A stretch of 64,000 nucleotides of DNA from contig OZ020262.1 of assembly GCA_963971285.1 (NCBI GenBank), positions 4,466,082 to 4,530,081 on the forward strand. Reading direction: 5' to 3'. The notes below the pieces were generated by a model. The model was not told the origin of the DNA and did no database searches. It was given only the letters and a program-made list of their open reading frames with translations. Made by a program: the position numbers and the translations under genes. The stretch comes from Astropecten irregularis. Its lineage: Eukaryota > Echinodermata > Asteroidea > Paxillosida > Astropectinidae. Shown here piece by piece: positions 23,166 to 44,975 of this stretch (positions are counted from its first letter, which is position 1; every line of letters starts with the position of its first letter).

Positions 23166-23488
23166 GCCGGGTAGAAAATCAGCCCATACAGGCGGTTCAA
23201 ATTGGATTTTGTGAAAATCATTTTCCTAACTAATATTGACCGGTGAGGGCGTTATGTCTATTTTTTGCTCATCCTTCCAATATTTACCAGCGACGGCGTT
23301 TTTGAAACGCATTAATTAGAGATATCTTATTTACTTGATTACTAATATCTCTATTTTGAAACAATAGGTTGAAATCGGTCACAAATAACTGTTCATTCTG
23401 TGGAATAACTTGCAACTCGTTTGAATCGAATAGGGACGGAGAATTGTTTACGTTAATTGGCCGTTCGTTTCACGATACGGAGCCTATA

Positions 23489-23549
23489 CAGTGGCGGATC
23501 TAGCTTATTGGTAAGGGGGCCGGGGGTTTAAACCCCCCCCACTGGGCAT
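23489..23549 (+). repeat. Left terminal inverted repeat
   Basis: CAGTGGCGGATCTAG, a purine-rich stretch with GGGGGCCGGGGG, TTTAAA, a C-run, then CACTGGGCA at 23540-23548. Same order as the reverse complement of 42557-42604, with the G/C tract of different length. Confidence 0.85.
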
Positions 23550-25735
23550 TTTACCCGTTATTACCCAGGTTATAACGGGTAATAACAGTGATATTACCCG
23601 GTAATATCAACTGGGTAATAACAGGGAAATAGTAGACCAATCTTTCCCCGTTACTACCCCTTATGTAACCGATATTTCTGTTATTGCTATATGTTATTAC
23701 CGCTTGATATTACCCCTTTTACCATGATATTACCATAAGAATGTAACCGATATTTCTGGACTTTCCCCGTTATTACCATCCGATATTACCCCTTTTACCC
23801 AATATTACCGCGGAATTGTAACCGATATTTCTTGCATTTCCCCGTTATTACCATCCGATATTACCCCTTTTACCATGATATTACCGTGGAAATGTAACCG
23901 ATATTTCTGGCATTTCCCCGTTATTACCATCCGATATTACCCCTTTTACCCAATATTACCGTGGAAATGTAACCGATATTTCTGGCATTTCCGTGTTATT
24001 ACCATCCGATGTTACCCCTTTTACCCAATATTACTGGGTAATAACAGGGAAATAGTAGACCAATCTTTCCCCGTTACTACCCCTTAATTATGTAACCGAT
24101 ATTTCTGGCATTTCCCCGTTATTACCATCCGATATTACCCCTTTTACCAAATATTACCGTGGAAATGTAACCGATATTTCTGGCATTTCCCCGTTATTAC
24201 CAACCGATATTACCCCTTTTTCCATGATATTACCGTGGAAATGTAACCGATATTTCTGGCATTTCCCCGTTATTACCATCCGATATTACCCCTTTTACCC
24301 AATATTACCTTGGAAATGTAACCGATATTTCTGGCATTTCCGTGTTATTACCATCCGATATTACCCCTTTTACCCAATATTACTGGGTAATAACAGGGAA
24401 ATAGTAGACCAATCTTTCCTCGTTACTACCCCTTAATATGTAACCGATATTTCTGGCATTTCCCCGTTATTACCATCCGATATTACCCCTTTTACCAAAT
24501 ATTACCGTGGAAATGTAACCGATATTTCTGGCATTTCCCCGTTATTACCAACCGATATTACCCCTTTTTCCATGATATTACCGTGGAAATGTAACCGATA
24601 TTTCTGGCATTTCCCCGTTATTACCATCCGATATTACCCCTTTTACCCAATATTACCTTGGAAATGTAACCGATATTTCTGGCATTTCCGTGTTATTACC
24701 ATCCGATATTACCCCTTTTACCCAATATTACTGGGTAATAACAGGGAAATAGTAGACCAATCTTTCCTCGTTACTACCCCTTAATATGTAACCGATATTT
24801 CTGGCATTTCCCCGTTATTACCATCCGATATTACCCCTTTTACCAAATATTACCGTGGAAATGTAACCGATATTTCTGGCATTTCCCCGTTATTACCAAC
24901 CGATATTACCCCTTTTTCCATGATATTACCGTGGAAATGTAACCGATATTTCTGGCATTTCCCCGTTATTACCATCCGATATTACCCCTTTTACCCAATA
25001 TTACCTTGGAAATGTAACCGATATTTCTGGCATTTCCGTGTTATTACCATCCGATATTACCCCTTTTACCCAATATTACTGGGTAATAACAGGGAAATAG
25101 TAGACCAATCTTTCCTCGTTACTACCCCTTAATATGTAACCGATATTTCTGGCATTTCCCCGTTATTACCATCCGATATTACCCCTTTTACCATGATATT
25201 ACAGTGGAAATGTAACCGATATTTCTGGCATTTCCCCGTGATTACCATCCGATATTACCCATTTTACCCAATATTACCGGGGTAATGTAACCGATATTTC
25301 TGGTTTTTCCTCGTTATTACCATCCGATATTACCCCTTTCACCAAATATTACCGGGGTAATGTAACCGATATTTCTGGCATTTCCGTGTTATTACCATCC
25401 GATATTACCTCTTTTACCCAATATTACTGGGGTAATTTAACCGATATTTCTGGCATTTCCGTGTTATTACCATCCGATATTACCTCTTTTACCCAATATT
25501 ACCAGGGTAATGTAACCGATATTTCTGGCATTTCCGTGTTATTACCATCCGATATTACCTCTTTTACCCAATATTACCGGGGTAATGTAACCGATATTTC
25601 TGGCATTTCCGTGTTATTACCATCCGATATTACCTCTTTTACCCAATATTACCGGGGTAATGTAACCGATATTTCTAGCATTTCCGTGTTATAACCATCC
25701 GATATTACCCTTTTACACAATATTACTGTACGTGA
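23550..25735. repeat. Left subterminal satellite (75 bp monomer, 348 bp higher-order repeat)
   Basis: Monomers of ~75 bp built from CCGATATTACCCCTTTTACC, CAATATTACCGTGGAAATG, TAACCGATATTTCTGGCATT and TCCCCGTTATTACCAT. From ~23.7 to 25.1 kb they are arranged in a ~348 bp higher-order unit that also holds ACTGGGTAATAACAGGGAAA; identical frames recur at 23875, 24224, 24572 and 24920. The distal part (25.2-25.7 kb) has simpler GGGGTAATGTAACC monomers. The first lines also contain inverted GGTAATA/TATTACC pairs. The recurring 70-residue open frames are repeat products. Confidence 0.95.
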
Positions 25736-25740
25736 GAATG

Positions 25741-26640
25741 TACAGTAATTGATTCTTCTGGCATGGCAAAGTTTTCACTGCTGGACATGCATCAGTGTTT
25801 ACCTGAAATACAAAGGTTAAATGCTGACTTTATCACTGAATTGATACCTAAATCCATTTTAATCATTATCTTTAGCAAGGCTTTACAAAGGAAGCACACA
25901 CAAACACATCTATTTTCAGCATGTATATGTATTCATCAACAAAACTTTCATGTATAAAAGCATAATACTTAATAAAAACATAATACGAAAGGCAAAATTT
26001 GAGCTCATAAACGTACATCAAAGACAAATTCATTTTGCTTGACCCCATGGTGAATTTTAAATTTTGTCCAGACATATAAACCAAACAAGGTATTTAATGT
26101 TTTGGTTCAATTGACCTCCCAAGGGCATTCGAAGTTGCAGTGTTGAACCTTTTGTTCAACCTTGCAACTTTGAAGATGGAAATGATTCAAGTTGAACAAA
26201 TTAAAACATTAAATACCTTGTTTGGTTAATATGTCTGGACAAAATTTAAAAATTCACCATGGGGTCAAGCAAAATGAATAAGACTGAAAACAGTTTTGAT
26301 CTCGGGGTAAGATAAAAACCATTCTTTATGTGTTATAAGAAAAATTGAGTTGGGTTTTCGCTATTTTCTCGTGACCCAAATGTCCGACTGAGCTCAAATT
26401 TTCACAGGTTTATTATTCCATACATACGCCATACTGGATCACGCAAAGTGTGAATATTGTTATGTGACCTTTAACAATCATGTATTATACCTTTAAAGGA
26501 GAGCAGTAAAATCAAAACTCCATTCAACTGTGCAAAGTATGTGTAAAGTGATAGCTAATTTATAGGGAACAAGTGCAAAGAAAAATTGACTGAATATAAT
26601 TAAATAACCACAATGGAAACTGACTGAATTTGAAGTCATT
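25741..26640. other. Transposon interior with a long hairpin
   Basis: Non-coding. Arms at about 26030-26104 and 26203-26279 (CATTTTGCTTGACCCCATGG...AAACCAAACAAGG and its inverse) form a ~75 bp stem. The rest resembles fragments of the TTAA-MITE interior (AATTTTCACAGGTTTATTAT, CCTTTAACAATCATGTA). Confidence 0.6.
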
Positions 26641-26655
26641 GAAAAGTGAGCAAAG

Positions 26656-27392
26656 AAAAATTGACAGGAGCGGACTCAAACCAGCGACCTCCTGAATGCC
26701 GTACAGGCACTCTACCAACTGAGCCATCCAGCCCTACGCTGTGGTGTTCCCATAATTTGTCAATTATCCATGTTCGTTTGGCAGTCACAAGCCATGAAAC
26801 CATGCACACACTGGCATATCCCAAGGATCATTTCACCGAAAAACGCAGCAATGCTGCAACCTGGGAACGGTACTGGGAACGGTACATGGGCCAGGGATCA
26901 CCATACATCTTTTTAATTAATATAATCATCAAACAAGGGAAACTGACTGAATTAAAGTCATTGAAAAGTGAACAAAGAAAAATTGTCTGGAGAGGGATTC
27001 GAACCACCTGAGCCATCCAGCCCTACGTTGGTGGTGCCTCCAATAGTCAATCATCCTTGTTCATAGGCTATTTGATGATTATATTAATTAAAAAGCTGTA
27101 TCCTCTATAAATGATCCCCATGTACCGTTCCCAGGTTGCAGCATTGCTGTGCATATCGATGTAATGATCCTTGGGATATGGCAGTGTGTGCGCGGTTTCA
27201 TGGCTTCTGACTGCATGGGGCTGGATGGCTCAGTCGGAAGAGCGCCGGTATGGTATTCAGGAGGTCGCAAGTTTGAGTCCCGCTCTAGTGAAATTTTCTT
27301 TCTTTACTTTTCAAAAATTGACAGAAGTGGGATTCGAACCAGCGACCTCCTGAATACCATACAGACTCTCTATCAACTGAGCTATCCCTAAT
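26656..27392. repeat. Cluster of tRNA-derived SINE-like heads
   Basis: Heads lie at 26656-26737 (-), 26975-27027 (-, partial), 27213-27298 (+) and 27318-27392 (-). Each has GGCTGGATGGCTCAGTTGG-type A-box and GGT(T)CGAATCCC-type B-box sequence. Between them run body segments CCTTGGGATATGGCAGTGTG, GTACCGTTCCCAGGTTGCAG and a pyrimidine-rich tail with TTTTCTTTGTTCACTTTTC. The opposed copies at 27213 and 27318 form an inverted pair next to the 3' end of the DUF4806 gene. Confidence 0.65.
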
Positions 27393-27431
27393 ATGAACAT
27401 AGATAATTGACTAAGCTATATACCCTCAAGT

Positions 27432-30400
27432 TTACTCGCTATCGTCAGCGTCGAGGATGGCCTCCTCCTCTGCTCCGGTTCCCTTTACCTTTGCTTCCCT
27501 TCTTTTCTTTCTCATTGCCTCCAAAGACTTGTGCTTCCTAAATTCAAATTTTGAACCCCCCTTGGTTATGGATGCCGTCTTTATGAGTGAAGCCATCTTG
27601 GTGTTCAAGGTTGGCTTCAAAGTCATCCTTGACCGGTGGCCGTCAACTATTTCTGAAATCATCAAATAAATACAGAGAAATATGCATACAGATTAATTTC
27701 TTATAAGTAGGACTTTGTACCAGAACTAGCTAGACACAGGCTGTTTTCTCACAATATCCACTGGCATTCTAATGAATTATGCTTTTGACACCATTGAAAT
27801 TGGTCAGATTTAATCTGTTGTCAATGTTTATAGATTCAATTCAAGTATTACATTTATTTACATAGATGTATCCTGCATGTTTGTGAACTTCTCTTTAACC
27901 ACGGTCCCTTTAATGGGACTGAGCTGAAATGTTAACAGGTTTATCATTTCATATACAATGCTGGATCAGACAAGTGTGAGAGCCGTTCTGTGACCTTTAA
28001 CAATCATGTAATATACCTTTAAGTGGGAACTCAACGGACCAAGAAATAGCATGAATGAGGGCCAACAAATTTCTGCACTTGGACGGTTTTTAGATGCATG
28101 TCTTCAAAGTGTGACCCTAATAATCACTAGTAGAGCAACAATTCTTAAATGAAACTACCGTATATCCCAGAAAACCACTGTGGCAAATATTGCATGAATG
28201 AGTGGATGAGTAATACATAGGATCCACGATGCTGCTAAACATACTTTAACAACTTCCATGTATGTCTGTTAATCCTCAATGTAAGTTGTTACCCCAATCA
28301 ACTTTCCAATCAAGAGCAACAAAAAAATCATGTCTACCTTCCATGAGTAGGTGGTGGAATGATTCTTTGACCCCGACGGTGCCATTTCCTCCTCCCCATG
28401 TAAGATCTTCGACGACCTTATGTGCAATTATCTTGAACAGTGCCATCCTTAGAAGTCCACTGGATGGCACCCGTTCACATGCCTTCAGCATCTTCTTCCG
28501 CTGTGATTTAAGAAACACAGAGACATATCTAATATCAGTACCACAAAAACAGTGATATTTTAATCTCAACTCTTTCTTGAAAACATTTAGAATGTTAAGG
28601 CTTACCACTACACGACGTGTGTGAGGGTCTGCCAACAGTTTGTCGTTGTTCAGGAACTCCTCAGTGGTCTGAGCTGGAATGCTCAGTGGCAGTTCTCCCT
28701 CATCTTCTATACTGCCTTCCTCTTCGGTGCTGGAGCCAGTTGCTTCAGCAATGGATGCTGACTCAGCAGTAGAACAGGTGTCTGCAGTTAAAGACGTTAA
28801 CTGCCTTTCGATTGCTGACAATCTGCCCAAAACCGACTTTTGGAAATTATCAAGTTTGATAATAATCAAGTCCAGCTTGTCGGTTTCGGGCAATGGATCC
28901 TGAAATATAGAAATCAAACAGAAAAATTAATCTGGGCACCCTATCAATACACATGTATAGGCTTTTATTAGTTTTCCCATTCGCACTCATTGAGTCCCAC
29001 TCAAATATGAGACACATAAATTTAGCTTCAAGTCAAATAGACGCACTTCAGGATCTTCATCAAACATATTATGCTGTGTCCAGTTTTCAACTGTTATCCC
29101 AACAGGAATAACCACTGAAAAATTACAATTGTTAATGTTTAATAGCGATATCACAAGCAGAGCGCGCACATTACAACTTAGAACATGCAATACATATGTG
29201 GGATATTGAATTTATAACTTCAAGTAACTTGACAGACATAAGATCCATAAACACTGTTTACACGCAAAAGCACGCTATATACATTTCATTTCGCAGGGTG
29301 CAATACAGCCGTACAATACAGGATAATTTTACACTATAAATGATATCAAAGGGTAGGGAAATAAGGCATAGCTACTTTGACCTGTTTGAAACATTGCCTC
29401 GTTGATGACACACCTCTCCAACTATTAAGAACTTTTTCTATTTCGCATAAGGTCGATCTCCTGTGCTATTTTGGTCTTGCAGCTTGGCTTTGACCTTTTC
29501 CGAGTTACCAGAATACACCTGGAAATAACATGCCTATACAACATTTGGCTGTTAGATTTACTCCCATTGACTTTTTCTGAGATGGGATGAGATTTGTGTG
29601 GATTTTTCGTCGATGTGATAATACTAGCTACCATCTTTTACAGTGTATTAATAAAGGTTTTTTTCTGTTATGTGCTGTACAGTTAAGTTTCAAGAACATA
29701 ATCATAGGACAAAGTTGAGGTTGATTAGCAGACATGACCCTATAACTGTATATAAGGCCACAACATAAAATTGCAAATAGGACGGTATCTGGTTCAACTG
29801 TTAGGCACTTGCCTTGGTATTCTGTATAGGACCATCTTCATCCATTGGAGTGTCCTCATGACCTCCATCAGAGGTTGCATCGGCTGCATCAGATGCAGCG
29901 CTACCGTTACCCTTGGTGTTGCTCCCTGATAAAATGGCAAATGACATACATATTCAAAGTCCTTTTCACCCTTGCAATGTATTCCATTAACACAATCCCA
30001 TGCATAGTTTCTGTTTTAGTTGAGAGCGTGTCACATGACGTCATATTTTCTACTAGAAAAGGCACAACAGAAGGTGATGTACTAGCACATGAAGCAAGCT
30101 TGAAGCAGTCAATATTTGTATAATATATTGACATATCAAGTACAAATTCACAGCTACTGTGCTATATACTCACCTGCCACACTGTCTTGTGGAGTAGCCT
30201 CATTCCCCAAGTTTACATCCAAGTCCGTGGGAACTGTAACAACAGGATCATAACAATATAACTGATATCATTGGTCCACTCTAGCAGTCATGAATCCTAC
30301 ACTTTTAAGTAATTGAAAAGTGAACAATTAAAGAAAAATTGACTGGAGCGGAATTCAAACCAGCCCTCTGGATTACTGTATGGTCAATGTTACCAACTGA

Positions 30401-31955
30401 GATACCCAGCCCTATGTTGGTGTTTCCCTATTATCTTTGCTCGTTTGTCAGTCAGAACCCATGAAACCACTCAGATACTTCTAAATCCAAAGGATCACTT
30501 GAGATGTACGTAGCATTAGCAATGTTGCAACCTCCAAATTAAATATGATTTTGAAGACACCCTATTATGGTGGCGCAGGAAAAACATCGCACATCACCAA
30601 TATCTGTGCATACATGTATATAATGCCGACATACAATGTTTGCAAATATTTGTGATATGCAAATATCGTACATCACAAATATATGTGCAGATATTTGTGA
30701 TGTACGATGTCCCTCCAGCGCCACCACACCCTAGGGAGTTCTGATGCAATTTGAATGTTGACTCACGTAAGTTAGACTTTGTTGGCCTTGGTCTTGATAG
30801 GGCAGTTGACAGCTTCACTGTGGAAAAAAAGAATTATTTGTAGTAATTTATCATTCAATTACAACGTATGTTGAAATTACTATATGAATGACAGAACTGA
30901 ACCTTCGTACCTGTAGGTGCTCCAGCCAAAGATCTAGGTATGGGGATAGGCTCAGTGTCTAGCATCGCCAGGCTTGCATCGCTGGCATTCTTGGGCGGTA
31001 GCTTGTGCACTGGGTCCTTTCCCCTTCTCTTCTTCCGTGGCATTTCTTCTTGTGTCTTGAGTTTGCGGTTCTTAACTACATACAGGGAGTTGATTCAATA
31101 CAGAGAGTATAGTGTTTGAAGAACTAGTTTTTATCTCCCCTCCAATAAATGCTGATATTATTACAATAGGTAGTTTTGTACATGGAAATATCATTGCCAT
31201 GCACTTTTACTGTAGAGTTCCTAAAAATTCATAACTTAAATTCACTCGGACTTACTCTTTGATTGGGTGCTGTCGAGCTCTTCCAAATCAGATGCACTGT
31301 CAGAATCAGAACACTGTTCACTGCAACTACTGTCGCTGCTGTTGTCCTCCTCGGCTAGCCGCATTGGTCTGGCGCGTACACGACATGGTCGCTGGGTATC
31401 GTTCCGAAGAGCATCCGATGATGAAGATGGGGCATCAAGGCGTTCCCTGAGAAGTGACTGGCCAGCTTCATAGTCAGTTATCACTGAACAGCAAATTATG
31501 ATAACAAAAATATGAAAGATAGTGGCACAGAGGAAATCACAATTTGAGAAAAAATATATCAAAAGATATGAAATTAAGTAGCACTAAAACTAAGAACTGT
31601 ACCTTGGCGTACTTCAACGGTAACTTTGAGCCATTCAGCTGGATGGGAACTTGGGGATTTCGCACAGGTCTCCTTAAGGCGAGAGTATTCTGGCTCTTTG
31701 ATTGTCCCATTTACTGGGAACCAGGCGCGTTGACATTCTTCACCATGCCTCTTTCGGACCCAGCGGAATGGTATCAGGTCATACGTTGCATCTCGCAGAT
31801 ATTTGACTAGCGTCCAGCTCTTGTCAGGATTATAGCCTGCTGAAAAGGGATATGAAAAGTTACACAAAATTAATGGAAGAAACAGTTAGCACTATACAGA
31901 CATTTTGAAAAGAAACATAAAATTTCATACTTTTTGGAATCCAAAGAGAATTCAT
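27432..31955 (-). CDS. Transposon-borne DUF4806-type protein, ten exons, 518 residues
   Basis: Exons (high to low): 31931-31955, 31603-31839, 31256-31483, 30911-31075, 30767-30817, 30174-30233, 29813-29925, 28606-28899, 28338-28500, 27432-27652. All phases join without a stop; nine introns end in AG, eight start with GT, and the one after 29813 starts with GC (AAG|GCAAGT). Residues ~13-45 (SWTLVKYLRDATYDLIPFRW) are the conserved N-terminal module typical of DUF4806 proteins. Residues ~88-165 are Ser/Asp/Glu-rich. A basic patch PRKKRRGKDP is a likely nuclear signal. Residues ~300-330 (IIIKLDNFQKSVLGRL) look like a coiled coil. Residues ~365-445 (LPLSIPAQTTEEFLNN, RRVVRKKMLKACERV, SSGLLRMALFKIIAHKVV, LTWGG) match DUF4806. 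The tail is Lys/Arg-rich and ends acidic (AILDADDSE). The 25-base first exon is the least certain part. It lies 382 bp downstream of the transposase gene on the same strand. DNA or partner binding is inference; no function of DUF4806 is firmly known to me. Confidence 0.8.
28338..28899 (-). CDS. Exons encoding the coiled coil and DUF4806 domain
   Basis: Exon 28606-28899 (98 codons, phase 0 to 0) and exon 28338-28500 (54 codons plus one base) are joined by a GT-AG intron. The splice converts RRVV...RKKML into one continuous helix-rich domain. An unspliced reading runs through the intron and gives a misleading 213-residue frame. Confidence 0.8.
30337..30418 (-). repeat. tRNA-derived SINE-like head in an intron of the DUF4806 gene
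   Basis: Minus strand reads GGCTGGGTATCTCAGTTGG...GGTTTGAATTCCGCTCCAG, a decayed copy of the same head, followed by TCAATTTTTCTTTAATTG. Confidence 0.6.
30560..30735. mobile_element. Foldback MITE in an intron of the DUF4806 gene
   Basis: Ends ACCCTATTATGGTGGCGC and GCGCCACCACACCCTAGGG are inverted. The interior alternates CGTACATCACAAATAT and ATATTTGTGATGTACG, giving a strong hairpin. It lies just downstream of the donor at 30767. Confidence 0.65.
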
Positions 31956-32336
31956 GTGCATCAAATCAAGTGCATCCAATTCAAATGATGCTATGTTGAA
32001 ATTTAGTCATAGGTCATTTAAATGTATAATCAACTGACAAGCTATCTAATGTAGCAGCACCTGCAAACTTTTAGTTGGTATAGCTTTTTCAGCAGTCCAT
32101 AGCATTTTGAAGTTCCAGCATTGTGCATAGCAACATTTACTTTCAATTATAAACAAAAATATTTTTTAATGGGGAAATTAATTCACAAAGAGTAGTGCAA
32201 CCTTTGACAAACCTGTTCTGATGCATGAGTCTGTTTTATCCTCCACGTTTTATATTCAGCCTCAAAGCAAAACAGCCCATCTTTAAGAACTGAAGGAAGT
32301 TAGGGCCAAGATACAATCCAGTTGATTGATACTCAG

Positions 32337-35141
32337 TTAAGTGTTCTCTGTGAAAGCAGAGCAGTGATTCAGAACCATAAACCAGACTCGGTTGTCCCTC
32401 AAAACTGTGTGCTTCCACACTTTGGCAACAATCTTGGTATCACCAATGTCTGTTGAGACTGAAAGAAACAAGTTCCCATTGGGACACTCAAGGAATCCCA
32501 CCAAGGAAGTGTCAATTGGTGCAGTGATAGCAGGTCGTAACCGTGTATATCGGCGGTAGACGTAGGTGCCATCATCAGCCAGCTCAGTGAATTCAATAAT
32601 TTCACCTTTAGATGTCAGATACACATTGTTAGGGGCTGTAATGCGAAGTTGTTCTTGTGTCAAGACACTTGTCTTGATAGGGTTTTCCCTGAGCCTCTTA
32701 GCTAGTTGCACTAGAGGCTTGTGACCAGGCTTAACCTTCTTCTTCAGCTGGCCAAGGAAGTTTTCAAACCTAAAAGCTGAGCTGTTTTCCAAACAACCAT
32801 GCTTCTCAACAACATCCCCCAAATGAAGGAGATGATGTACATTGTAAACAACAAAAATATCGCCATACAGTTTGAAAGCTTTCTTTACAAAAAGGGTTAA
32901 CAACTCCCTTGCATAATCCAGCTGCAGATAAGCCGTCCTCTCACTCACTAAAAGACCAATGGCCACTGACAAGAGAAGAAAATGATTGTAGTAGACAGGC
33001 CTCAAAACACCTTTGAAGGCAAATGGGCCAGTGTACAGCAGCAGTGTCCTGTATTCCGTAGCCTTAAATCTCTTGATCTTTTCCAATGACCGTGGTTTGC
33101 GTACAAAGTTGGATGGCATCGTCTCCTTCATCCCCATCAATTTCCTGTTAATGTCAGCCACTGCAACTTGGTCCAGATGGAATGCTGTATGATGGAATTG
33201 CCTGTCCAACCAGAAATCGGTAAGCCGCTTTACCACGCCAAGGCAGACCATGTGCATGTAATCCAAGGCAAACCCATGTATCATGTCAAAGCCTGGAATA
33301 TTCAACCATGGACTGTCGACGCAGCGAGAATGATGATGTTCTGTGTAGTCCTTCCTGCGGAATGTGTCGTCACTTTGCAGGTCAAAATTCTCAGTCCTGT
33401 AGAACACCATCCTACCATCCACCTTGGTTGCTTTGCAAAGACCGCGCTCACAGGAATGTGCACCCATGTGTCCCATGATGCTTTTCATAAAGGCTCGAGC
33501 TGGTGCATCACATACTATGCACATCAGACAAACTTGGTGGTGGTTGCCTTTGTAAATGAAGCCATCTTGGAGTAGACGAGATAACTCACCAACAGTCTGG
33601 TTAACGTAGGAGACACAGCTTGGTTTACCACCCATAGTTGCACACACGGGAAATATTTTGTACTGTGACTGGTCATTCTCTAGACACCCCAGTACTGGCC
33701 ACGAGTTGGCATTAGATGAATCAAAAATGAGTACACCATCGACACCAATCGCAAGTTTAATCTCTTCATTTAGACGAAGTGGACGAATCATAAAGTCCAG
33801 AGCACGTGTTAACTGGTCATCAATGCCAAACCAGTGGTACTCTACACCGAAGTAGGATGGATTAATGTTAACAAAGCCTGGAGTGCAAAGTAAAGTGCGC
33901 GGATCCTTTGGCAAATCTTGGACACCAGCACGACTGAAAAGCTTAAGCAGGTGCTGCTGGTCACTCCGCGAAAGTGAAGTTTTTCCAAAGAATTCACGCA
34001 ATTCCCTCTTGAAGAACTCTGCTTCAGTCGCTATTTGTTCACCATCAACCTCTCTAACATAAATGACATGATTGTCATCAGCCTCTTCATCAGAAATGCT
34101 GTCACTGGCATAATAACCAGGGCTGGCAGGACCAGGGCTGTCGTAAACAGGGCTGGCAGGACCAGGAGTGTCGTAACCAGGACTGGCAGGACCAAGGGTG
34201 TCGTAACCAGGACTGGCAGGACCAGGGCTGTCGTAAACAGGGCTGGCAGGACCAGGAGTGTGGTAACCAGGACTGGCAGGACCAAGGGTGTCGTAACCAG
34301 GACTGGCAGGGACAGGGGTGTCGTAACCAGGACTGGCAGGACCAGGGGTGTCGTAACCAGGACTGGCAGGACCAGGGGTGTCGTAACCAGGACTGGCAGG
34401 ACCAGGGGTGTCGTAACCAGGACTGGCAGGACCAGGGGTGTTGTAACCAGGACTGACAGGACCAGGGGTGTCGTAACCAGGACTGGCAGGACAAGGAGTA
34501 TTGTAACCAGGACTGGCAGGACCAGGAGTGTCGTAACCAGGACTGGCAGGACCAGGAGTGTCGTAACCAGGCCTGGCAGGACCAGGAGTGTCGTAACCAG
34601 GACTGGCAGGACCAGGGGTGTTGTAACCAGGGCTGGCAGGACCAGGAGTGTCGTAACCAGGGCTGGCAGGACCAGGGGTGTCGTAACCAGGACTGGCAGG
34701 ACCAGGGGTGTCGTAACCAGGGCTGGCAGGACCAGGGCTGGCAGGACCAGGGGTGTCGTAACCAGGACTGGCAGGACCAGGGGTGTCGTAACCAGGGCTG
34801 GCAGAACCAGGGGTGTCGTAACCAGGGCTGGCAGGACCAGGGCTGGCAGGACCAGGGGTGTCGTAACCAGGACTGGCAGGACCAGGGGTGTCGTAACCAG
34901 GGCTGGCAGAACCAGGGGTGTCGTAACCAGGGCTGGCAGGACCAGGAGTGTCGTAACCAGGGCTGGCAGGACCAGGGGTGTCGTAACCAGGGCTGGCAGA
35001 ACCAGGAGTGTCATAATTGAATGGCCCTCTCCTCACTTTTTCTAAGATGCTACATATTCTAAGTTCCTCTCTTTTCTTCTGGGCCCATTTCGCTTTTTGG
35101 TGACGGCGTTTCTCCTTTCGGACGTAATCATCCTCGTCCAT
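32337..35141 (-). CDS. TNP2/CACTA-like DDE transposase with a decapeptide-repeat N-terminal region, 934 residues
   Basis: Single open frame. I start at the Met at 35141 (ACAATGG context) rather than 14 codons upstream, because a splice acceptor (CATTAG) lies 10 bases before it. Residues 1-42 are basic (RKEKRRHQKAKWAQKKREE). Residues 43-342 are 29 tandem YDTPGPASPG-type units. Residues ~350-460 are an acidic linker and helical region. Catalytic candidates: D468 in AIGVDGV, D545 in the VCDAPAR motif, and E793 in SSAFRFENFLG, the D-D-E pattern expected of TNP2/Plavaka-like transposases. Conserved LDYMHMVCLGVVKRLTDFW (627-644) and a Cys/His-rich CLMCIVCDAP...HSCERGLC segment support the family. 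Expected role: cuts and joins element ends in the nucleus. No stop or frameshift is seen, so it could be functional. Confidence 0.85.
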   Translation of the reverse strand: MDEDDYVRKEKRRHQKAKWAQKKREELRICSILEKVRRGPFNYDTPGSASPGYDTPGPASPGYDTPGPASPGYDTPGSASPGYDTPGPASPGYDTPGPASPGPASPGYDTPGSASPGYDTPGPASPGYDTPGPASPGPASPGYDTPGPASPGYDTPGPASPGYDTPGPASPGYNTPGPASPGYDTPGPARPGYDTPGPASPGYDTPGPASPGYNTPCPASPGYDTPGPVSPGYNTPGPASPGYDTPGPASPGYDTPGPASPGYDTPGPASPGYDTPVPASPGYDTLGPASPGYHTPGPASPVYDSPGPASPGYDTLGPASPGYDTPGPASPVYDSPGPASPGYYASDSISDEEADDNHVIYVREVDGEQIATEAEFFKRELREFFGKTSLSRSDQQHLLKLFSRAGVQDLPKDPRTLLCTPGFVNINPSYFGVEYHWFGIDDQLTRALDFMIRPLRLNEEIKLAIGVDGVLIFDSSNANSWPVLGCLENDQSQYKIFPVCATMGGKPSCVSYVNQTVGELSRLLQDGFIYKGNHHQVCLMCIVCDAPARAFMKSIMGHMGAHSCERGLCKATKVDGRMVFYRTENFDLQSDDTFRRKDYTEHHHSRCVDSPWLNIPGFDMIHGFALDYMHMVCLGVVKRLTDFWLDRQFHHTAFHLDQVAVADINRKLMGMKETMPSNFVRKPRSLEKIKRFKATEYRTLLLYTGPFAFKGVLRPVYYNHFLLLSVAIGLLVSERTAYLQLDYARELLTLFVKKAFKLYGDIFVVYNVHHLLHLGDVVEKHGCLENSSAFRFENFLGQLKKKVKPGHKPLVQLAKRLRENPIKTSVLTQEQLRITAPNNVYLTSKGEIIEFTELADDGTYVYRRYTRLRPAITAPIDTSLVGFLECPNGNLFLSVSTDIGDTKIVAKVWKHTVLRDNRVWFMVLNHCSAFTENT
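34110..35015 (-). repeat. Coding minisatellite (30 bp unit) in the transposase gene
   Basis: 29 units, 27 of 30 bp and two of 45 bp (extra PASPG). Variation is almost all single-base (YDTPGPASPG, YNTPGPASPG, YDTPGSASPG, YDTLGPASPG). All unit lengths are multiples of three, so frame is kept; the same property leaves 327- and 336-codon shadow frames in other phases. Confidence 0.97.
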
Positions 35142-35183
35142 TGTGGCTATTCTAATGAGTACATGTAGAAAGCATACAGACAT

Positions 35184-35715
35184 TTCATCCTAAACATCTC
35201 ACATATACTATTTGAGAATTTGGCTATATGTTCCTTGCTGGTCAAGAAATGCAGGCGTAGTGATTACTTACCAGAGGTGGACATAACTGTAGAGTGTAGA
35301 AAACCACGAACTGGTACAGCACACCACCACAAGGAGTCTAAAAAAGTGGGAAAATGGCAATTTGGTAATACTAATACAAGTCATTGTCTAAGGGGGGGGG
35401 GGCCTGGGTCTGCTGACAGTTACATGACCTTGTTGACTGTTGAGGATTTGTCATTATTTGTTATGTGCAATGACTAACCGTGATGATCATCATGATTATA
35501 AACAAAATTGGTCACAATATAGGGCATTCATAACTTCTGAAGGCGTTAAGCGAGACAATAATGCAGAGGTCAGAGGAGTCATGATGTTCAGCCATGTCAC
35601 AGCATAACAAGGGGGCAAGACCCCCAAATTAATTGGGATAATTGTATTGTCATATTTTTACATTATATGTTATTGTACCCTCACTCCCTCAGTTTAGCTT
35701 GCAATATTGATTACA
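35184..35715. other. Upstream region of the transposase gene
   Basis: No coding exon. Contains a G-run at 35393-35402. The acceptor-like CATTAG just upstream of the transposase Met implies that a 5' untranslated intron ends here. Confidence 0.4.
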
Positions 35716-36162
35716 TTGTAGATTGACTTACTATGCCTAAAGTGATTGCTCCTTCTAAATAGGAATTAGAATAGTACTTGAAGTGTATATAGTATACACT
35801 CCATTAATGCAATCTCTATTCATCAGACAAAAATTTATAATGAATATAAGTTGTTATTTTGTCTGATGCATAGAAAATGCATTCATGGAGAATTTGTGTG
35901 GAATATACACACACTTCAAGGATACCAAGGCTGACCCTTGGTCAAGTGTACATAATGATGAATGGTATAGAAAAACACTGCTGACCTAATGAGATTGGGG
36001 AATTGAATTGATTCCCATACCCACTTTCTACAACTTGGGAGGGTCAAATTATATGGACTTGACCAAGCCTTGGTTTTTTTGATGAGGTACATCTGTTTTA
36101 GGTTTCTCGGCCATGGCAATTGAGTAGAAATCAGCAGGGTCAAGAACACCCCTTTTCCCTTG
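35716..36162. repeat. Duplicated block, copy 1
   Basis: About 447 bp nearly identical to 36763-37219. Contains a hairpin (35777-35922) whose arms begin ACTTGAAGTGTATATAG and end ATACACACACTTCAAG, with inner CAGACAAAA/TTTTGTCTG pairing. Confidence 0.85.
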
Positions 36163-36378
36163 TAATTAATACCTTAAGTCCTGTTTAAGGGCCCTAATTG
36201 GTTCTGCATTTATTTAATCTACCTGTAAACCTTCCTGTTTTTTTATTGTAAAAAAACACTGGATCGATGACCTAGGTTTTAATACTTGTATTGATGTTAT
36301 GTTTATGCAAAACCATTCTTAAGTTATCACTACAGTTTAAACATCAATGTGCTTCTTGCCTTTCATGCATTATTTTAA

Positions 36379-36560
36379 AGGTATATGCTATCATATTTTG
36401 GTAGCATACCAAAAAAGAAATCTTAATAGATCTACCTATAACTTACAAAGTATATAAATGGTGATGATAGAAACATTCTGTTAAAACTTGTCTGCCTGAA
36501 ATGTGATTCATAAAGAAAAAAGAGTAAAATCTGTTAATCATCCAAAAACAGTTCTCAAAG
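36379..36560. mobile_element. TTAA-MITE left half (AGGTAGTATCATAC family)
   Basis: Starts after TTAA (36375-36378) with AGGTATATGCTATCATATTT. Its right part appears displaced to ~37320-37445 (TTCTTTGACAAAAACCCAAG), with the second duplicated block in between. Confidence 0.55.
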
Positions 36561-36762
36561 GAGATATCAAAACCCTGACCCTGATCATAGATGCTTTTGT
36601 TTGTAAAGGTTGAGTTATAGGAATAGATCAGTTAAGATCAATTTAAGTAATAAGTATAATATTGTTTAGTGGCAAATTGCAATTTAATAGAGTTTACTAG
36701 TTCTGCTTCTTGTATTACTGTAACTGTATAGAATAGCATATATAAGTGATATCTATTGATAG

Positions 36763-37219
36763 ATTGTAGATTGACTTACTACTGTACTATGCCTAACGTG
36801 ATTGCTCCTTCTAAATAGGAATTAGTACAGCACTTGAAGTGTATATAGTATACACTCCATTAATGCAATCTCTATTCATCAGACAAAAATTTATAATGAA
36901 TATAAGTTGTTATTTTGTCTGATGCATAGAAAATGCATTCATGGAGAATTTGTGTGGAATATACACACACTTCAAGGATACCAAGGCTGACCCTTGGTCA
37001 AGTGTACATAATGATGAATGGTATAGAAAAACACTGCTGACCTAATGAGATTGGGGAATTGAATTGATTCCCATACCCACTTTCTACAACTTGGGAGGGT
37101 CAAATTATATGGACTTGACCAAGCCTTGGTATTTTTGATGAGGTACATCTGTTTTAGGATTCTTGGTCATGGCAATTGAGTAGAAATCAGCAGGGTCAAG
37201 AACACCCCTTTTCCCTTGA
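36763..37219. repeat. Duplicated block, copy 2
   Basis: Near-identical to 35716-36162 in the same orientation, about 1.05 kb away. Flanks differ, so it behaves like an inserted unit rather than a tandem copy. Confidence 0.85.
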
Positions 37220-37957
37220 TTTTGCTTTTATGTAATCAAATTGCAAACCTCTATTCTTTACTAACTGTGAAAAACAGGAAGATCAAAACTCCTGTGAATA
37301 AATTTGAAGATGTCATGATGAAGTTCACTATTTTCTCAAAATGTGGGTACCATATCGGACTGGAAATTTCACAGATGACTGTCATGCTTTCCTGATTGTT
37401 GTTGCCAATGAATCTCCATTTCTTTGACAAAAACCCAAGTATGATACATGTGTACTTTATACATAACATGCTTTTCCTCTGTTCTTGTGTATTGAGCAAA
37501 TTGTATAGATATTTCAAACGTTTGTCGTTTGAACTAATTAACATAGGCCTACTCTTTTCATGTTGAAATTCTGACTCAATATCCCTTGAATGTTTAACTT
37601 CAGTTTGCGACAGCGAGCAACAGATTGAACAAATTGCCTCATTTTTGAGGAAACTGATTTTTCATTTCGTTTAATATTATGGACGTGTGCAAGTCCACAG
37701 AATGTCTCAAGATGAGGAAGATCAAATTAATATGTGGACTATTGTCCTGAAATCCACACTTTATGACAGTAGGCCTACTTGTAATATTGTAAGGTTGAAA
37801 CATGCATGCATACACAGTGAATGACAAAACTAATCAGACAAAAATTAAAGACAAATTTTGCTTCCATAGGCCTACACTACTACTTACTAGTCATTACAAT
37901 ACTTTTCTCTACACGTCTCTAGAAAGCAAAGCAATTGTAAGATCATGGTAAGTTTAA

Positions 37958-38267
37958 AGGTATAGTATCATACTTTGGTAAGAAACCAAAACAGAAATGT
38001 TCATAGATTTACGTATAACTTTCAGGGTATGAAGATGGCAGTGGTAGACAACGACCGAAAATCTTTTTGATGTTTTAAAAGATCAAAAGTAAAAGAGAAA
38101 AGACTTAAGAAATACTGTGGCCGTTTTTCATTGTTTTCTCAAAAAGTGGGCGCCGTATGGGACTGAAATTTTCACAGATGACTGTGACTGTATCTTCCTT
38201 GATATTTTTGCCCATTAATCTGTAGGCCCCCTACTTCTTTGACAAAAAACAAAGTATGATACTACCT
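37958..38267. mobile_element. TTAA-flanked MITE, AGGTAGTATCATACTTTGG family (copy 3)
   Basis: Flanked by TTAA (37954-37957, 38268-38271). Left end AGGTATAGTATCATACTTTG, right end CAAAGTATGATACTACCT. Nested inside the 19 kb transposon. Confidence 0.85.
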
Positions 38268-38592
38268 TTAAACAGAAAACTAAATCTAATAATATATCTA
38301 ATACTCTATAAAACGTAGGTTAAACATTACATGGAAAGGGAAATAACGACTGAATGTCGGACCAAAATTAAAATGGCTATTTTTGTCCAGTTTTACCATG
38401 CCATGGCCCATGGCAACACCAACTTAAGCAAAGAATGCCAAAGTCTCAAAAATTATCATTGAGTTTAAAATAATGATGATCTCTATGATTTATAGAAAGT
38501 GAGACAAAAGAAATATGAAAGTCTCTACACAGTCAAATATATATCATAACCAATCAAATAATTATAGTTAAGATTACAAGAACTTTTCCTAC

Positions 38593-38725
38593 CTGAAACT
38601 GAAAGTGAAACGGAAGAGCTAGAGGGCATCCAGAACGGCAGAAGAAGTTTGAATGAAGCACTGAGGCATAATGATGGCTGGACAAACCACCCAATTACAA
38701 GCCTCTGCAATGCGGAATGATCCAT
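38593..38725 (-). promoter_or_regulatory. Possible 5' exon of the transposon transcript(s)
   Basis: A short minus-strand frame ends at a strong donor (GTTTCAG|GTAGGA at 38592). Joined to the acceptor next to the transposase Met it hits a stop at once (G|AA TAG), so it could only be an untranslated leader. A shared leader for both genes would match the En/Spm arrangement. Inference only. Confidence 0.25.
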
Positions 38726-39229
38726 TTACAGAGCAGGGAGGCTCAGGCGCAGTACTGGAGGTATTATATGCCATTGGAAATATACTGCTGACAAATACTT
38801 GATTTTTTCGGTTACTACATAATGTGGCAATTACTTGAAAAACGCATTAGGTTCCTAGAGTAGCAGAAGCGAAATACGTCAGAAGATAATTGGCGTCACT
38901 TGAAGCGCGAAGGGTTTAGCCCCCTAAAAATGTTGGCTCAGTCCACAACCGCTCTGGATGTGCTCAATATGCAAGAACCTGTCTGGAAAGTTTCAACGGA
39001 GTTGACCTTGTACTTCACACACAGTAAAGTGGCATAGACACCCCCTCATACCTGGGGGGGGGGGGGGGAGATCCTCTAACACTGATGGGTCGAACTCTCA
39101 TGTACATGTACAAGTATATAATGCATATATGTAGATATATATATATGAGCCTATTATTTTGCCTTGTGAGCCTGCACAGTTTTTTTTTACATGACGCCCA
39201 CATGGGCCAGCCCAGTAATTTATATTAAT

Positions 39230-42200
39230 TATTACTGTTATTAAGTTTCCAATGTTATAACCTGGCATTTCAACCGTTAGGTATTACCCACATTACTTCT
39301 CATCACCCTGTTGTTACTGGGTAAAATTTGGGTTTTAACAAGGTAATAACAGTAATATTTGAAGTTGTGAATTTTTCTGAAATTGCTGTTATTTTTCTGT
39401 TATTACTCAAGTTACCAATGTTATAACCCATTTCAACCGTCAGTTATTACCCACATTTCCTCTCATCACCCTGTTGTTACTCGGTAAAATATGGGTTTCA
39501 ACAAAGTAATAACAGTAATATTTGAACTTAGTAATTATTTTGGAATTGCTGTTATTTTTCTGTTATTACTCAAGTTCCCAATGTTATAACCCATTTCAAC
39601 CATCAGTTATTACCCACATTACCTCTCATCACCCTGTTGTTACTCGGTAAAATATGGGTTTCAACAAGGTAATAACAGTAATATTTGGACTTAGTAATTA
39701 TTTTGGAATTGCTGTTATTTTCCTGTTATTACTCAAGTTACCAATGTTATCACCCATTTCAACCACCAGTTATTACCCACATTACCTCTCATCACCCTGT
39801 TGTTACTGGGTAAAATATGGGTTTCAACAAGGTAATAACAGTAATATTTGAACTTAGTAATTATTTTGGAATTGCTGTCATCTTTCTGTTATTACTCAAG
39901 TTACCAATGTTATCACCCATTTCAGCCGTTAGTTATTACCCACATTACCTCTCATCACCCTGTTGTTACTGGGTAAAATATGGGTTTCAACAAGGTAATA
40001 ACAGTAATATTTGGACTTAGTAATTATTTTGGAATTGCTGTTATTTTCCTGTTATTACTCAAGTTACTCATGTTATAACCCATTTCAACCATTAGTTATT
40101 ACCCACATTACCTCTCATCACCCTGTTGTTACTCGGTAGAATATGGGTTTCAACAAGGTAATAACAGTAATATTTGAACTTAGTAATTATTTTGGAATTG
40201 CTGTTATCTTTCTGTTATTACTCAAGTTCCCAATGTTATAACCCATTTCAACCACCAGTTATTACCCACATTACCTCTCATCACCCTGTTGTTACTCGGT
40301 AAAATATGGGTTTCAACAAGGTAATAACAGTAATATTTGGACTTAGTAATTATTTTGGAATTGCTGTTATCTTTCTGTTATTACTCAAGTTACCAATGTT
40401 ATCACCCATTTCAGCCGTTAGTTATTACCCACATTACCTCTCATCACCCTGTTGTTACTCGGTAAAATATGGGTTTCAACAAGGTAATAACAGTAATATT
40501 TGGACTTAGTAATTATTTTGGAATTGCTGTTATTTTTCTGTTATTACTCAAGTTCCCAATGTTATAACCCATTTCAACCATCAGTTATTACCCACATTAC
40601 CTCTCATCACCCTGTTGTTACTCGGTAAAATAAGGGTTTCAACAAGGTAATAACAGTAATATTTGGACTTAGTAATTATTTTGGAATTGCTGTTATTTTT
40701 CTGTTATTACTCAAGTTCCCAATGTTATAACCCATTTCAACCATCAGTTATTACCCACATTACCTCTCATCACCCTGTTGTTACTCGGTAAAATATGGGT
40801 TTCAACAAGGTAATAACAGTAATATTTGGACTTAGTAATTATTTTGGAATTGCTGTTATTTTTCTGTTATTACTCAAGTTCCCAATGTTATAACCCATTT
40901 CAACCATCAGTTATTACCCACATTACCTCTCATCACCCTGTTGTTACTCGGTAAAATATGGGTTTCAACAAGGTAATAACAGTAATATTTGGACTTAGTA
41001 ATTATTTTGGAATTGCTGTTATTTTTCTGTTATTACTCAAGTTCCCAATGTTATAACCCATTTCAACCATCAGTTATTACCCACATTACCTCTCATCACC
41101 CTGTTGTTACTCGGTAAAATATGGGTTTCAACAAGGTAATAACAGTAATATTTGGACTTAGTAATTATTTTGGAATTGCTGTTTATTTTTCTGTTATTAC
41201 TCAAGTTCCCAATGTTATAACCCATTTCAACCATCAGTTATTACCCACATTACCTCTCATCACCCTGTTGTTACTCGGTAAAATATGGGTTTCAACAAGG
41301 TAATAACAGTAATATTTGGACTTAGTAATTATTTTGGAATTGCTGTTATTTTTCTGTTATTACTCAAGTTCCCAATGTTATAACCCATTTCAACCATCAG
41401 TTATTACCCACATTACCTCTCATCACCCTGTTGTTACTCGGTAAAATATGGGTTTCAACAAGGTAATAACAGTAATATTTGGACTTAGTAATTATTTTGG
41501 AATTGCTGTTATTTTTCTGTTATTACTCAAGTTCCCAATGTTATAACCCATTTCAACCATCAGTTATTACCCACATTACCTCTCATCACCCTGTTGTTAC
41601 TCGGTAAAATATGGGTTTCAACAAGGTAATAACAGTAATATTTGGACTTAGTAATTATTTTGGAATTGCTGTTATTTTTCTGTTATTACTCAAGTTCCCA
41701 ATGTTATAACCCATTTCAACCATCAGTTATTACCCACATTACCTCTCATCACCCTGTTGTTACTCGGTAAAATATGGGTTTCAACAAGGTAATAACAGTA
41801 ATATTTGGACTTAGTAATTATTTTGGAATTGCTGTTATTTTTCTGTTATTACTCAAGTTCCCAATGTTATAACCCATTTCAACCGTCAGTTATTACCCAC
41901 ATTACCTCTCATCACCCTGTTGTTACTCGGTAAAATATGGGTTTCAACAAGGTAATAACAGTAATATTTGGACTTAGTAATTATTTTGGAATTGCTGTTA
42001 TTTTTCTGTTATTACTCAAGTTCCCAATGTTATAACCCATTTCAACCATCAGTTATTACCCACATTACCTCTCATCACCCTGTTGTTACTCGGTAAAATA
42101 TGGGTTTCAACAAGGTAATAACAGTAATATTTGGACTTAGTAATTATTTTGGAATTGATGTTATTTTTCTGTTATTACTCAAGTTCCCAATGTTATAACC

Positions 42201-42310
42201 CATTTCAACCGTCAGTTATTACCCACATTACCTCTCATCACCCTGTTGTTACTCGGTAAAATATGGGTTTCAACAAGGTAATAACAGTAATATTTGGACT
42301 TAGAAATTTG
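39230..42310. repeat. Right subterminal satellite (163 bp monomer, ~19 copies)
   Basis: Monomer contains CAGTTATTACCCACATTACC, TCTCATCACCCTGTTGTTAC, TCGGTAAAATATGGGTTTCA, ACAAGGTAATAACAGTAATA, TTTGGACTTAGTAATTATTT and GCTGTTATTTTTCTGTTATT. Copies are spaced exactly 163 bp (for example 39654, 39817, 40306, 41121). From ~40.5 to 42.3 kb they are nearly identical, so homogenisation is recent. The monomer differs from the left array but shares TTATTACC and GGTAATAA words. Confidence 0.96.
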
Positions 42311-42439
42311 ATACATATGGTGCACCATATTCAGTAATTTTACTCATCAGAAACAGATCCTGTCGGCCCCTAGAATGAATTATATCTGATCCTCATTCTA
42401 AAATACCAAATATTAAAGAATAGCACACTTTCAAAGTCA

Positions 42440-42604
42440 TGCAAAGGTAATATCATTGGGGTAATAACACGGTAATATCGGTAATATTTGGACTTAGTCA
42501 AATTTGGGGCTGTTATTACCGGTAATATCGGGTAATATCGGTAATCGGTAACAATTTGCCCAGTGGGCCTTAACCCCCCCCCCCCCCCCCTAGATCCGCC
42601 ACTG
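42440..42604 (-). repeat. Right terminal region and inverted repeat
   Basis: GGTAATATCGGTAATATTTG and GGTAATATCGGGTAATATCG lead to TTTGCCCAGTG (ending 42565), GGCCTTAA, a run of about 19 C, then CTAGATCCGCCACTG ending 42604. Confidence 0.85.
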
Positions 42605-42609
42605 CTATA

Positions 42610-43665: not shown

Positions 43666-43856
43666 GGGGTGTAGCGCAGACCGATGTATTATTAGTAACT
43701 ATCAGTATTATAAATGGAGACCGAAAATGAGCACCCTTTAAAATTCTTATCATTTTAAAACCATTTTCATACCTGCATGTGCTTTGAATGTTTTCATGTT
43801 TTATGCCCTATAATTGGAAAAAATCTCGAAAAAAAAAAATATTCTGTTCTGTTCCA

Positions 43857-44975
43857 GTATGGAGTAGTGCCCCCTAGTAGTTCCCCCTGTATGAAGTAGT
43901 GCCCCCCGGTAGTTCCCCCAGTATGGAGTAGTGCCCCCAGGTAGTTCCCCCAGTATGGAGTAGTGCCCCCAGGTAGTTCCCCCAGTATGAAGTAGTGCCC
44001 CCCGGTAGTTCCCCCAGTATGAAGTAGTGCCCCCAGGTATAGTTCCCCCAGTATGGAGTAGTGCCCCCAGGTAGTTCCCCCAGTATGAAGTAGTGCCCCC
44101 AGGTATAGTTCCCCCTGTATGAAGTAGTGCCCCCAGGTAGTTCCCCCAGTATGGAGTAGTGCCCCCAGGTAGTTCCCCCAGTATGAAGTAGTGCCCCCCG
44201 GTAGTTCCCCCAGTATGAAGTAGTGCCCCCAGGTATAGTTCCCCCAGTATGGAGTAGTTCCCCCAGTATGGAGTAGTTCCCCCAGTATGAAGTAGTGCCC
44301 CCAGGTAGTTCCCCCAGTAGTTCCCCCAGTATTAAGTAGTGCCCCCAGGTAGTTCGCCCAGTAGTTCCCCCAGTAGTGCCCCCAGGTAGTTCCCCCAGTA
44401 GTTCCCCCAGTATGAAGTAGTGCCCCCCGGTAGTTCCCCCAGTAGTTCCCCCAGAATGAAGTAGTGCCCCCCGGTAGTTCCCCAGTAGTTCCCCCAGTAG
44501 TTCCCCCAGTATGAAGTAGTGCCCCCAGGTAGTTCCCCCAGTAGTTCCCCCAGTATGAAGTAGTGCCCGGTAGTTCCCCGAGTACATGTAGTTCCCCCAG
44601 TATGGAGTAGTGCCCCCAGGTAGTTCCCCAGGTTGTTCCCCCAGTATGAAGTAGTGCCCCCCGGTAGTTCCCCCAGTAGTTCCCCCAGTATGGAGTAGTG
44701 TCCCCTAGTAGTTCCCCCAGTATGGAGTAGTGCCCCCTAGTAGTTCCCCCAGTATGAAGTAGTGCCCCCGGTAGTTCCCCCAGTGTTGTAGTTCCCCCCA
44801 TTACGGTAGTTTCCCCCAGTATGGGAGTAGTTCCCCCAGTATGGAGTTGTTCCCCCAGTATGGGAGTAGTTCCCCCAGTATGGAGTAGTACCCCCAGTAT
44901 GGAGTAGTACCCCCAGTATGGTAGTACCCCCAGTATGGTAGTTCCCCCAGTATGGAGTAGTACCCCCAGTATGTT
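43857..44975. repeat. Minisatellite (GTAGTTCCCCCAGTATGGA-type, 15/31 bp units)
   Basis: About 1.1 kb of alternating GTAGTTCCCCCAGTATG(G/A)A and GTAGTGCCCCCAG units. Overlapping minus-strand open frames of 237-395 codons (rich in GGTT) are repeat products. It ends about 60 bp before the acceptor of the exon at 45037. Confidence 0.95.

What the first reader, a model, noticed from the sequence alone, without database searches (positions are those of the whole stretch)
23489..42604. A 19 kb animal transposon built like plant En/Spm: TNP2-like transposase, second protein, and two giant subterminal satellites
Seen: perfect 15 bp inverted ends with CTATA direct repeats, CACTGGGCA just inside, 2.2 kb and 3.1 kb tandem arrays next to the two ends, and two open genes on one strand. 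Known: En/Spm encodes TnpD (TNP2 transposase) and TnpA, which binds short subterminal motifs. Inference: the arrays here are enlarged binding platforms for one of the two element proteins, and the copy may be mobile.
Basis: partly seen in the sequence, partly recalled or inferred. Interest (0 to 1): 0.88.

Follow-up and report, generated by a model that had tools for sequence, protein, structure and literature searches.

The report
Animal CACTA-type transposon inside a MITE
A 19 kb animal jumping gene, distantly related to the maize En/Spm element, sits inside a much smaller and unrelated mobile element; the two satellite arrays at its ends share a repeated DNA word that looks like a docking site.

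Summary
The 15-bp CAGTGGCGGATCTAG ends with CTATA belong to an abundant MITE-like family (238 perfect 15-mers; 5-bp target duplications in 14 of 15 complete copies fetched). The transposase element lies inside one such MITE. Its own ends are CCCACTGGGCA...TGCCCAGTGGG (23538-42567, 19,030 bp). Eleven other near-full-length right-end matches stop at this border; ten other copies have both ends; 10 of 11 including the window show a 2-bp duplication. CCC termini, 2-bp duplication and a TNP2-type transposase are published marks of animal TRC elements (SmTRC1, PMC1636069), a CACTA-related group. The En/Spm-like plan partly holds: TNP2 frame, second multi-exon gene on the same strand, arrays at both ends. 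The arrays have different units but share GGTAATAAC (30 and 38 sites; none in 13.5 kb between), and three 4.4-4.5 kb copies read in full keep such sites only near their ends. Catalytic D, D, E are present, but this copy alone among 41 aligned proteins lacks the second cysteine of C(2)C, so present mobility is doubtful. Binding of the arrays by an element protein is inferred, not shown.

The parts
23484..23488 (.). left CTATA, 5-bp target duplication of the host MITE
23489..23537 (+). left part of the host MITE (CAGTGGCGGATCTAGCTTATTGGTAAGGGGG...)
   Evidence: resembles the CTTTTTGGTAAGGGG-type end of MITE copies L009-L023
23538..42567 (.). TRC/CACTA-type transposon, 19,030 bp
   Evidence: borders fixed by other copies
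23538..23548 (+). left terminal inverted repeat CCCACTGGGCA
23706..25726 (+). left subterminal array (75-bp units, 348-bp higher-order unit), rich in GGTAATAAC/GTTATTACC
27432..31839 (-). gene 2, exons A-I (31839-31603, 31483-31256, 31075-30911, 30817-30767, 30233-30174, 29925-29813, 28899-28606, 28500-28338, 27652-27432): 509 aa conceptual protein without inner stop and without its start codon; 7 GT donors and 1 GC donor, AG acceptors; splice sites chosen by hand
   Evidence: exons A-D only are supported by 69% identity over 234 aa to P0121, Lytechinus pictus; exon A has one match in the genome
35272..35284 (-). candidate first exon of gene 2 (ATGTCCACCTCTG|GTAAGT), upstream of the transposase frame
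   Evidence: 1 of 2 candidates with a strong donor and matching phase in the searched stretch; the other lies inside ORF1; inference
32337..35189 (-). ORF1, TNP2-type transposase, 950 aa stop to stop; start codon of MDEDD at about 35141 (read by eye)
34114..35016 (-). 30-bp minisatellite coding about 30 copies of YDTPGPASPG at the N-terminal side of ORF1
39243..42308 (+). right subterminal array, 163 bp x 18.8
42309..42567 (+). unique right subterminal stretch and right end ...TTTGCCCAGTGGG
   Evidence: 96-98% identical at 11 other places
42557..42567 (-). right terminal inverted repeat TGCCCAGTGGG
42568..42604 (+). right part of the host MITE; its first two bases CC are the inferred 2-bp target duplication of the inner element (left partner in a poly-C run, ambiguous)
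42605..42609 (.). right CTATA, 5-bp target duplication of the host MITE

Best explanation
A 19,030-bp animal CACTA-related (TRC-type) cut-and-paste transposon at 23538-42567 has inserted into a short MITE of another family. Shown: its borders, its CCC-starting inverted ends, a 2-bp target duplication in the family, a TNP2-type transposase with the catalytic D, D and E in place, a spliceable second gene, and two terminal arrays sharing a 9-bp motif on both strands. Inferred: the transposase cuts at the ends, and the gene-2 product (a TnpA analogue by position only) binds the GGTAATAAC-type sites so as to bring the ends together. On this reading the arrays are cis sites, and tandem growth enlarged them in this copy. 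I put the binding role of gene 2 at about 45% and a cis role of the motif, whichever protein binds it, at about 65%. This copy looks coding but possibly inactive.
For: Borders: 11 of 11 other near-full-length right-end matches stop at query base 259-260 of 296, and 11 of 11 other left ends start at CCCACTGGGCA. Ten other copies have both ends, 4.4-5.4 kb plus one of 12.8 kb with a retroelement inside. A 2-bp duplication is present in 10 of 11 including the window. Host MITE: 15 complete MITEs fetched, 14 with a perfect 5-bp duplication (L013 and L014 share flanks and may be one duplicated locus), one with a mismatch. Transposase: 237 homologs, 120 listed; Transposase_21 in 5 and DUF4218 in 19 of 41 aligned members; D129, D206, E454, H430 and H434 in 41 of 41. 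Motif GGTAATAAC, both orientations: left 30, right 38, middle 0. It occurs 24, 23 and 21 times in three other copies, only near the two ends. Shuffled units share a 9-mer with at least 2 copies on each side in 1 of 3000 trials, and as many different shared 9-mers in 0 of 3000; a single shared 9-mer is common, 1881 of 3000. Against the window copy the right ends are 96-98% and the left ends 95-97% identical, while the alignable pieces away from the right end are 78-86% in three copies.
Against: No binding, transcript or transposition data. The window's own transposase core hits no Pfam model by itself. The C(2)C second cysteine is G here and C in 40 of 41. Gene 2 hits no Pfam model and only one protein, and that only over exons A-D. 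One of 11 pairs, C16:15.17 Mb, lacks the 2-bp duplication, and the window's own CC lies at a poly-C run and is ambiguous. The shared motif could reflect common origin of the two arrays. Pieces of the left array of one copy are only about 75-90% identical to the window, so strong conservation is shown for the tips and, at about 93-94%, the right array, not for the left array as a whole. The 4.4-4.5 kb copies are not simple deletions of this copy but seem to come from a sister about 20% diverged.
Confidence: 0.78

Rival explanations
1. One reading: one 19 kb element whose ends are the 15-bp CAGTGGCGGATCTAG repeats with a 5-bp CTATA duplication.
For: Perfect 15-bp inverted ends and CTATA on both sides enclose everything.
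Against: All 11 other near-full-length right-end copies end at CCCAGTGGG without the CAGTGG tail. The CAGTGG ends occur as complete MITEs of under 310 bp with 5-bp duplications and without this content (15 fetched).
Confidence: 0.02
2. The arrays are passive satellites grown by slippage near the ends, with no binding role.
For: Units within the window's right array are more alike (0.972 mean) than they are to units of three other copies (0.937), with 28 identical pairs, so the array grew recently. Unit numbers vary among copies. In Chenopodium a satellite array near the 3' end of CACTA elements is reported as an addition or capture; the passages I saw name no binding role (PMC8978399).
Against: Two different units share the same motif on both strands, absent from 13.5 kb between. 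Three copies read in full keep it near both ends only.
Confidence: 0.33
3. Gene 2 is a captured host gene, not a TnpA-like partner.
For: P0121 of Lytechinus pictus is annotated as a protein of its own with a different C-terminal part; whether it lies in a transposon there was not testable. No Pfam match.
Against: Its exon A has only one match in the genome, inside this element, so no host copy was found. It is on the same strand, downstream of the transposase, with a phase-matched candidate first exon upstream of it, resembling the En/Spm layout in PMC2613891 (passages).
Confidence: 0.2
4. A recently active autonomous element rather than a damaged one: the C-to-G change is tolerated because a cysteine two residues on (CERGLC) takes its place.
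For: A 950-aa frame without stop; nine gene-2 exons joinable in frame; recent array growth.
Against: C(2)C spacing holds in 40 of 41 aligned proteins. No second close copy of the transposase was found in the assembly.
Confidence: 0.25

Closest known systems
Animal TRC elements (SmTRC1 of Schistosoma mansoni; Aedes and Tribolium TRCs), PMC1636069 (abstract, passages and section 8 seen); Spongebob_HMa of Hydra, PMC4298943 (passages)
   Same: TIR starting CCC; 2-bp target duplication (in SmTRC1 in 7 of 14 copies, per the paper); Transposase_21-type transposase; further products from 3' exons; insertion into other repeats also reported for SmTRC1.
   Different: Longer (19 kb against 9.2 kb in Aedes and about 5.2 kb in Tribolium); paired kilobase-size satellite arrays with a shared motif. 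A tandem-repeat region of SmTRC1 is named in a figure legend; the word subterminal does not occur in that paper's held text.
Maize En/Spm and soybean Tgmt* (CACTA), PMC2613891 (passages)
   Same: TNP2 transposase plus a second gene with the transposase frame in its first intron (inferred here); subterminal repeats in direct and inverted orientation. Tgmt* is of similar length, 20.5 kb.
   Different: CCC instead of CACTA ends, 2-bp instead of 3-bp duplication; no relation of the second protein was found here; kilobase arrays of 75- and 163-bp units instead of short reiterated motifs.
CACTA elements with captured satellite DNA in Chenopodium, PMC8978399 (passages)
   Same: A satellite array close to one end of a CACTA element.
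   Different: Here arrays lie at both ends, recur in other copies, and share a motif.

Membership tests
Animal TRC (CACTA-related) | TIR begins with CCC | tested here: met
   CCCACTGGGCA at 11 of 11 other left ends read and at the window; CCCAGTGGG at right ends (L070 has one mismatch inside)
Animal TRC (CACTA-related) | 2-bp target-site duplication | tested here: met
   10 of 11 copies with both ends, window included
Animal TRC (CACTA-related) | Transposase_21 (TNP2) transposase | tested here: met
   indirect: homologs at 31-53% identity; 5 of 41 aligned members hit PF02992 and 19 of 41 hit PF13960; the window protein alone hits neither
Animal TRC (CACTA-related) | alternatively spliced transcripts giving a second protein | not testable with these tools
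   spliceable second gene found; no transcripts available
CMC/CMCT clade (as described in PMC12730594, passages) | catalytic D, D, E with C(2)C and H(3-4)H motifs | tested here: inconclusive
   D129, D206, E454, H430 and H434 met; second cysteine of C(2)C is G in this copy, C in 40 of 41
Plant-type En/Spm (CACTA sensu stricto) | TIR begins CACTA | tested here: not met
   CCCACTGGGCA
Plant-type En/Spm (CACTA sensu stricto) | 3-bp target-site duplication | tested here: not met
   2 bp
Plant-type En/Spm (CACTA sensu stricto) | TnpA-type protein binding subterminal motif | not testable with these tools
   motif found; binding not assayed

The most novel reading that the evidence does not exclude
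An animal CACTA-type transposon builds and enlarges its own paired satellites as docking platforms for a second element protein. Plant En/Spm and animal TRC elements would then share a two-protein, array-docking way of moving, and such elements would seed satellite DNA in animal genomes.
Probability: 0.35. Interest if true: 0.62.

Novelty: new member of a known kind. Interest (0 to 1): 0.42.

Why it matters
DNA-binding partners of animal CACTA-type transposases seem poorly known; PMC1636069 found no similarity between the SmTRC1 second protein and other TRC elements. Here one coding copy, ten other copies with arrays next to both ends and no transposase match, and a shared 9-bp motif make the question directly testable. 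It also warns that abundant MITE ends around a large insertion can be mistaken for its borders.

Tried and rejected
A TNP2 family with 5-bp duplications was considered after and dropped once moved the borders. The search for DUF4806 (PF16064) genes in the genome did not complete, so coupling of TNP2 and DUF4806 genes is untested; the resemblance of the gene-2 tail to DUF4806 is by eye only. The empty-site search with joined outer flanks did not complete, so no empty site is shown. PMC3485254 (passages) held nothing usable on ends. The listings of literature searches showed no paper that by title or abstract start describes this element.

Full report
What was checked. The perfect 15-bp inverted ends (23489-23503, 42590-42604), CTATA on both sides, CACTGGGCA inside, both tandem arrays and the minus-strand open frames are in the sequence. 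Array lengths by Tandem Repeats Finder are 2.0 kb and 3.07 kb.

The outer ends are a different element. The 15-mer occurs 238 times in the 475.7 Mb assembly (130 forward, 108 reverse; control pattern 0); the first 100 places were listed. Among those 100 I saw 15 opposite-facing pairs under 300 bp apart and fetched all 15, plus 5 single ends. 14 of the 15 pairs have a perfect 5-bp direct repeat and L022 has one mismatch; L013 and L014 share flanks and may be one duplicated locus. Their two ends are unequal: one mostly continues CTTTTTGGTAAGGGG, the other runs of G with TTTAGGGGG or similar. The window has the first type on the left and the second on the right, so the window holds one MITE, split in two. 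That these are MITEs of another family is inferred from size and ends; their transposase was not identified.

The inner element. A search with 42309-42604 gave 23 matches: the window itself, 11 others at 96-98% identity that all end at query base 259 or 260 of 296, one partial match (L071) also ending at 259, nine short matches to the tail only (query base 255 or later), and one internal match in the window. Beyond the border the flanks of these copies differ from each other. Left-end search from 23537 found 11 other left ends at 95-97%, all 11 starting CC CACTGGGC. Pairing left and right ends by place and strand gives 10 other complete copies: nine of about 4.4-5.4 kb and one of 12.8 kb on C23. 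The orphan ends are C15:1.25 Mb (left), C28 and C18 (right). The C23 copy is a 4.5-kb type with a gypsy-like retroelement inside. Array-type matches lie next to the left end of each of the ten and 163-bp array next to their right ends. Two-base direct repeats flank CCC...GGG in 9 of the 10 other pairs (TT, TT, CA, TT, AG, TG, TA, TT, AG); C16:15.17 Mb has CC/GG and fails. The window has CC on both sides, at poly-C. So the element is 23538-42567.

The transposase. ORF1 (950 aa stop to stop) hits no Pfam model itself. Its core found 237 homologs among 7999 scored candidates; of the 120 listed the best is 53% identical (P0001) and the others 31-41%, some named as animal proteins (Mytilus, Hydra, Dreissena, Lingula). 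I aligned 40 of the 120 listed with the window. 19 of 41 members match DUF4218 and 5 of 41 match Transposase_21 at E up to 0.01. D129, D206, E454, H430 and H434 are invariant in 41 of 41. At the second cysteine of C(2)C the window has G and the other 40 have C. In the assembly the transposase core has one full-identity place, this one, and 42 other matches; the 15 best of these are 33-40% identical and all 42 lie between 26 and 52%, the higher values being short stretches. The N-terminal side carries a minisatellite-coded decapeptide repeat not seen in P0001.

Gene 2. Nine minus-strand exons, with splice sites that I chose by hand, join in frame to 509 aa with AG acceptors throughout and GT donors except one GC. 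Between exons G and H the frame is also open without splicing, so that intron is uncertain. Exons A-D are 69% identical over 234 aa to a Lytechinus pictus protein, the only hit among 7999 candidates; exons E-I have no such support. Exon A matches only this place in the assembly. A first exon fitting in phase and donor lies at 35284-35272, upstream of ORF1. If it is used, the transposase frame sits in intron 1 of gene 2, as PMC2613891 (passages) describes for tnpD and tnpA. No Pfam family matches gene 2. The Hydra TNP2 protein P0054 has a sub-threshold DUF4806 match (E 8.7e-5, 23.2 bits against 25), a hint that second-protein domains can be fused or mis-joined there.

The arrays. The 75/348-bp and 163-bp units are different sequences but share GGTAATAAC in both orientations: 6+24 on the left, 19+19 on the right, 0+0 in the 13.5 kb between. 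With one 348-bp and one 163-bp unit, a shared 9-mer with at least two copies in each occurred in 1 of 3000 dinucleotide shuffles, and as many different shared 9-mers in 0 of 3000; a single shared 9-mer is common in shuffles (1881 of 3000). The three other copies read in full keep 24, 23 and 21 sites, all within about 750 bp of the left end or about 1.2 kb of the right end, with none in the 2.7-2.9 kb between. These three are 97.3-97.7% identical to each other; their alignable pieces away from the right end are 78-86% identical to the window copy, and the longest of these pieces starts in the left array. In one copy, pieces of the left array match the window at about 75-90%. The window's right array grew recently: its 18 whole units average 97.2% identity, against 93.7% to 12 units of the three other copies, which average 96.3% among themselves. 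Copies differ in unit number.

How it most likely works. Shown: borders, duplications, catalytic residues, spliceable second gene, shared motif. Reported for the group: animal TRC elements have CCC ends, 2-bp duplications (7 of 14 SmTRC1 copies), a Transposase_21 domain and alternatively spliced further proteins (PMC1636069, abstract, passages and section 8); plant TNPA recognises subterminal repeats, which act in cis (PMC2613891, passages). Inferred: the gene-2 protein or the transposase binds the GGTAATAAC-type sites, and the arrays are enlarged docking regions.

Verdict. A new, long member of the animal TRC branch of the CACTA-related transposons, nested in a MITE. Ordinary in kind, useful as a test case for the animal counterpart of TnpA. 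Current mobility is unproven and doubtful.

Noticed in passing
23484-23537 and 42568-42609; loci L009-L023: Abundant MITE-like family with unequal ends (CAGTGGCGGATCTAG) and 5-bp target duplications; its transposase was not identified.
   Followed up: partly
34114-35016: About 30 in-frame copies of a decapeptide YDTPGPASPG in the transposase N-terminal side, rich in SP/TP like the RNA polymerase II tail (resemblance recalled); absent from the closest homolog P0001.
   Followed up: no
G000 C1:8.3-14.6 Mb: About a third of the TNP2-like matches (15 of 43) crowd into some 6 Mb of one contig.
   Followed up: no
L045, L046, L047: Another TNP2-like family with three matches of equal score on three contigs; L045 and L046 agree at 3507 of 4092 ungapped positions, L047 at 1106 (no gapped alignment made).
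   Followed up: partly
35720-37200: A duplicated stretch inside the element, about 1.06 kb apart (35799-35890 repeated at 36855-36946).
   Followed up: no
26672-27387 and about 30300-30420: tRNA-like SINE-looking repeats (by eye) inside the element, the first in inverted arrangement.
   Followed up: no
55397-60267, 43854-44991, 13994-14863, 52438-53647: Further satellite arrays in the window outside the element (30 bp x 163, about 32 bp, 37 bp, about 52 bp).
   Followed up: no
L096 (C23:12596600-12606500): A copy of the 4.5-kb type interrupted by a gypsy-like retroelement of about 7.7 kb (type judged by eye from its open frames).
   Followed up: partly
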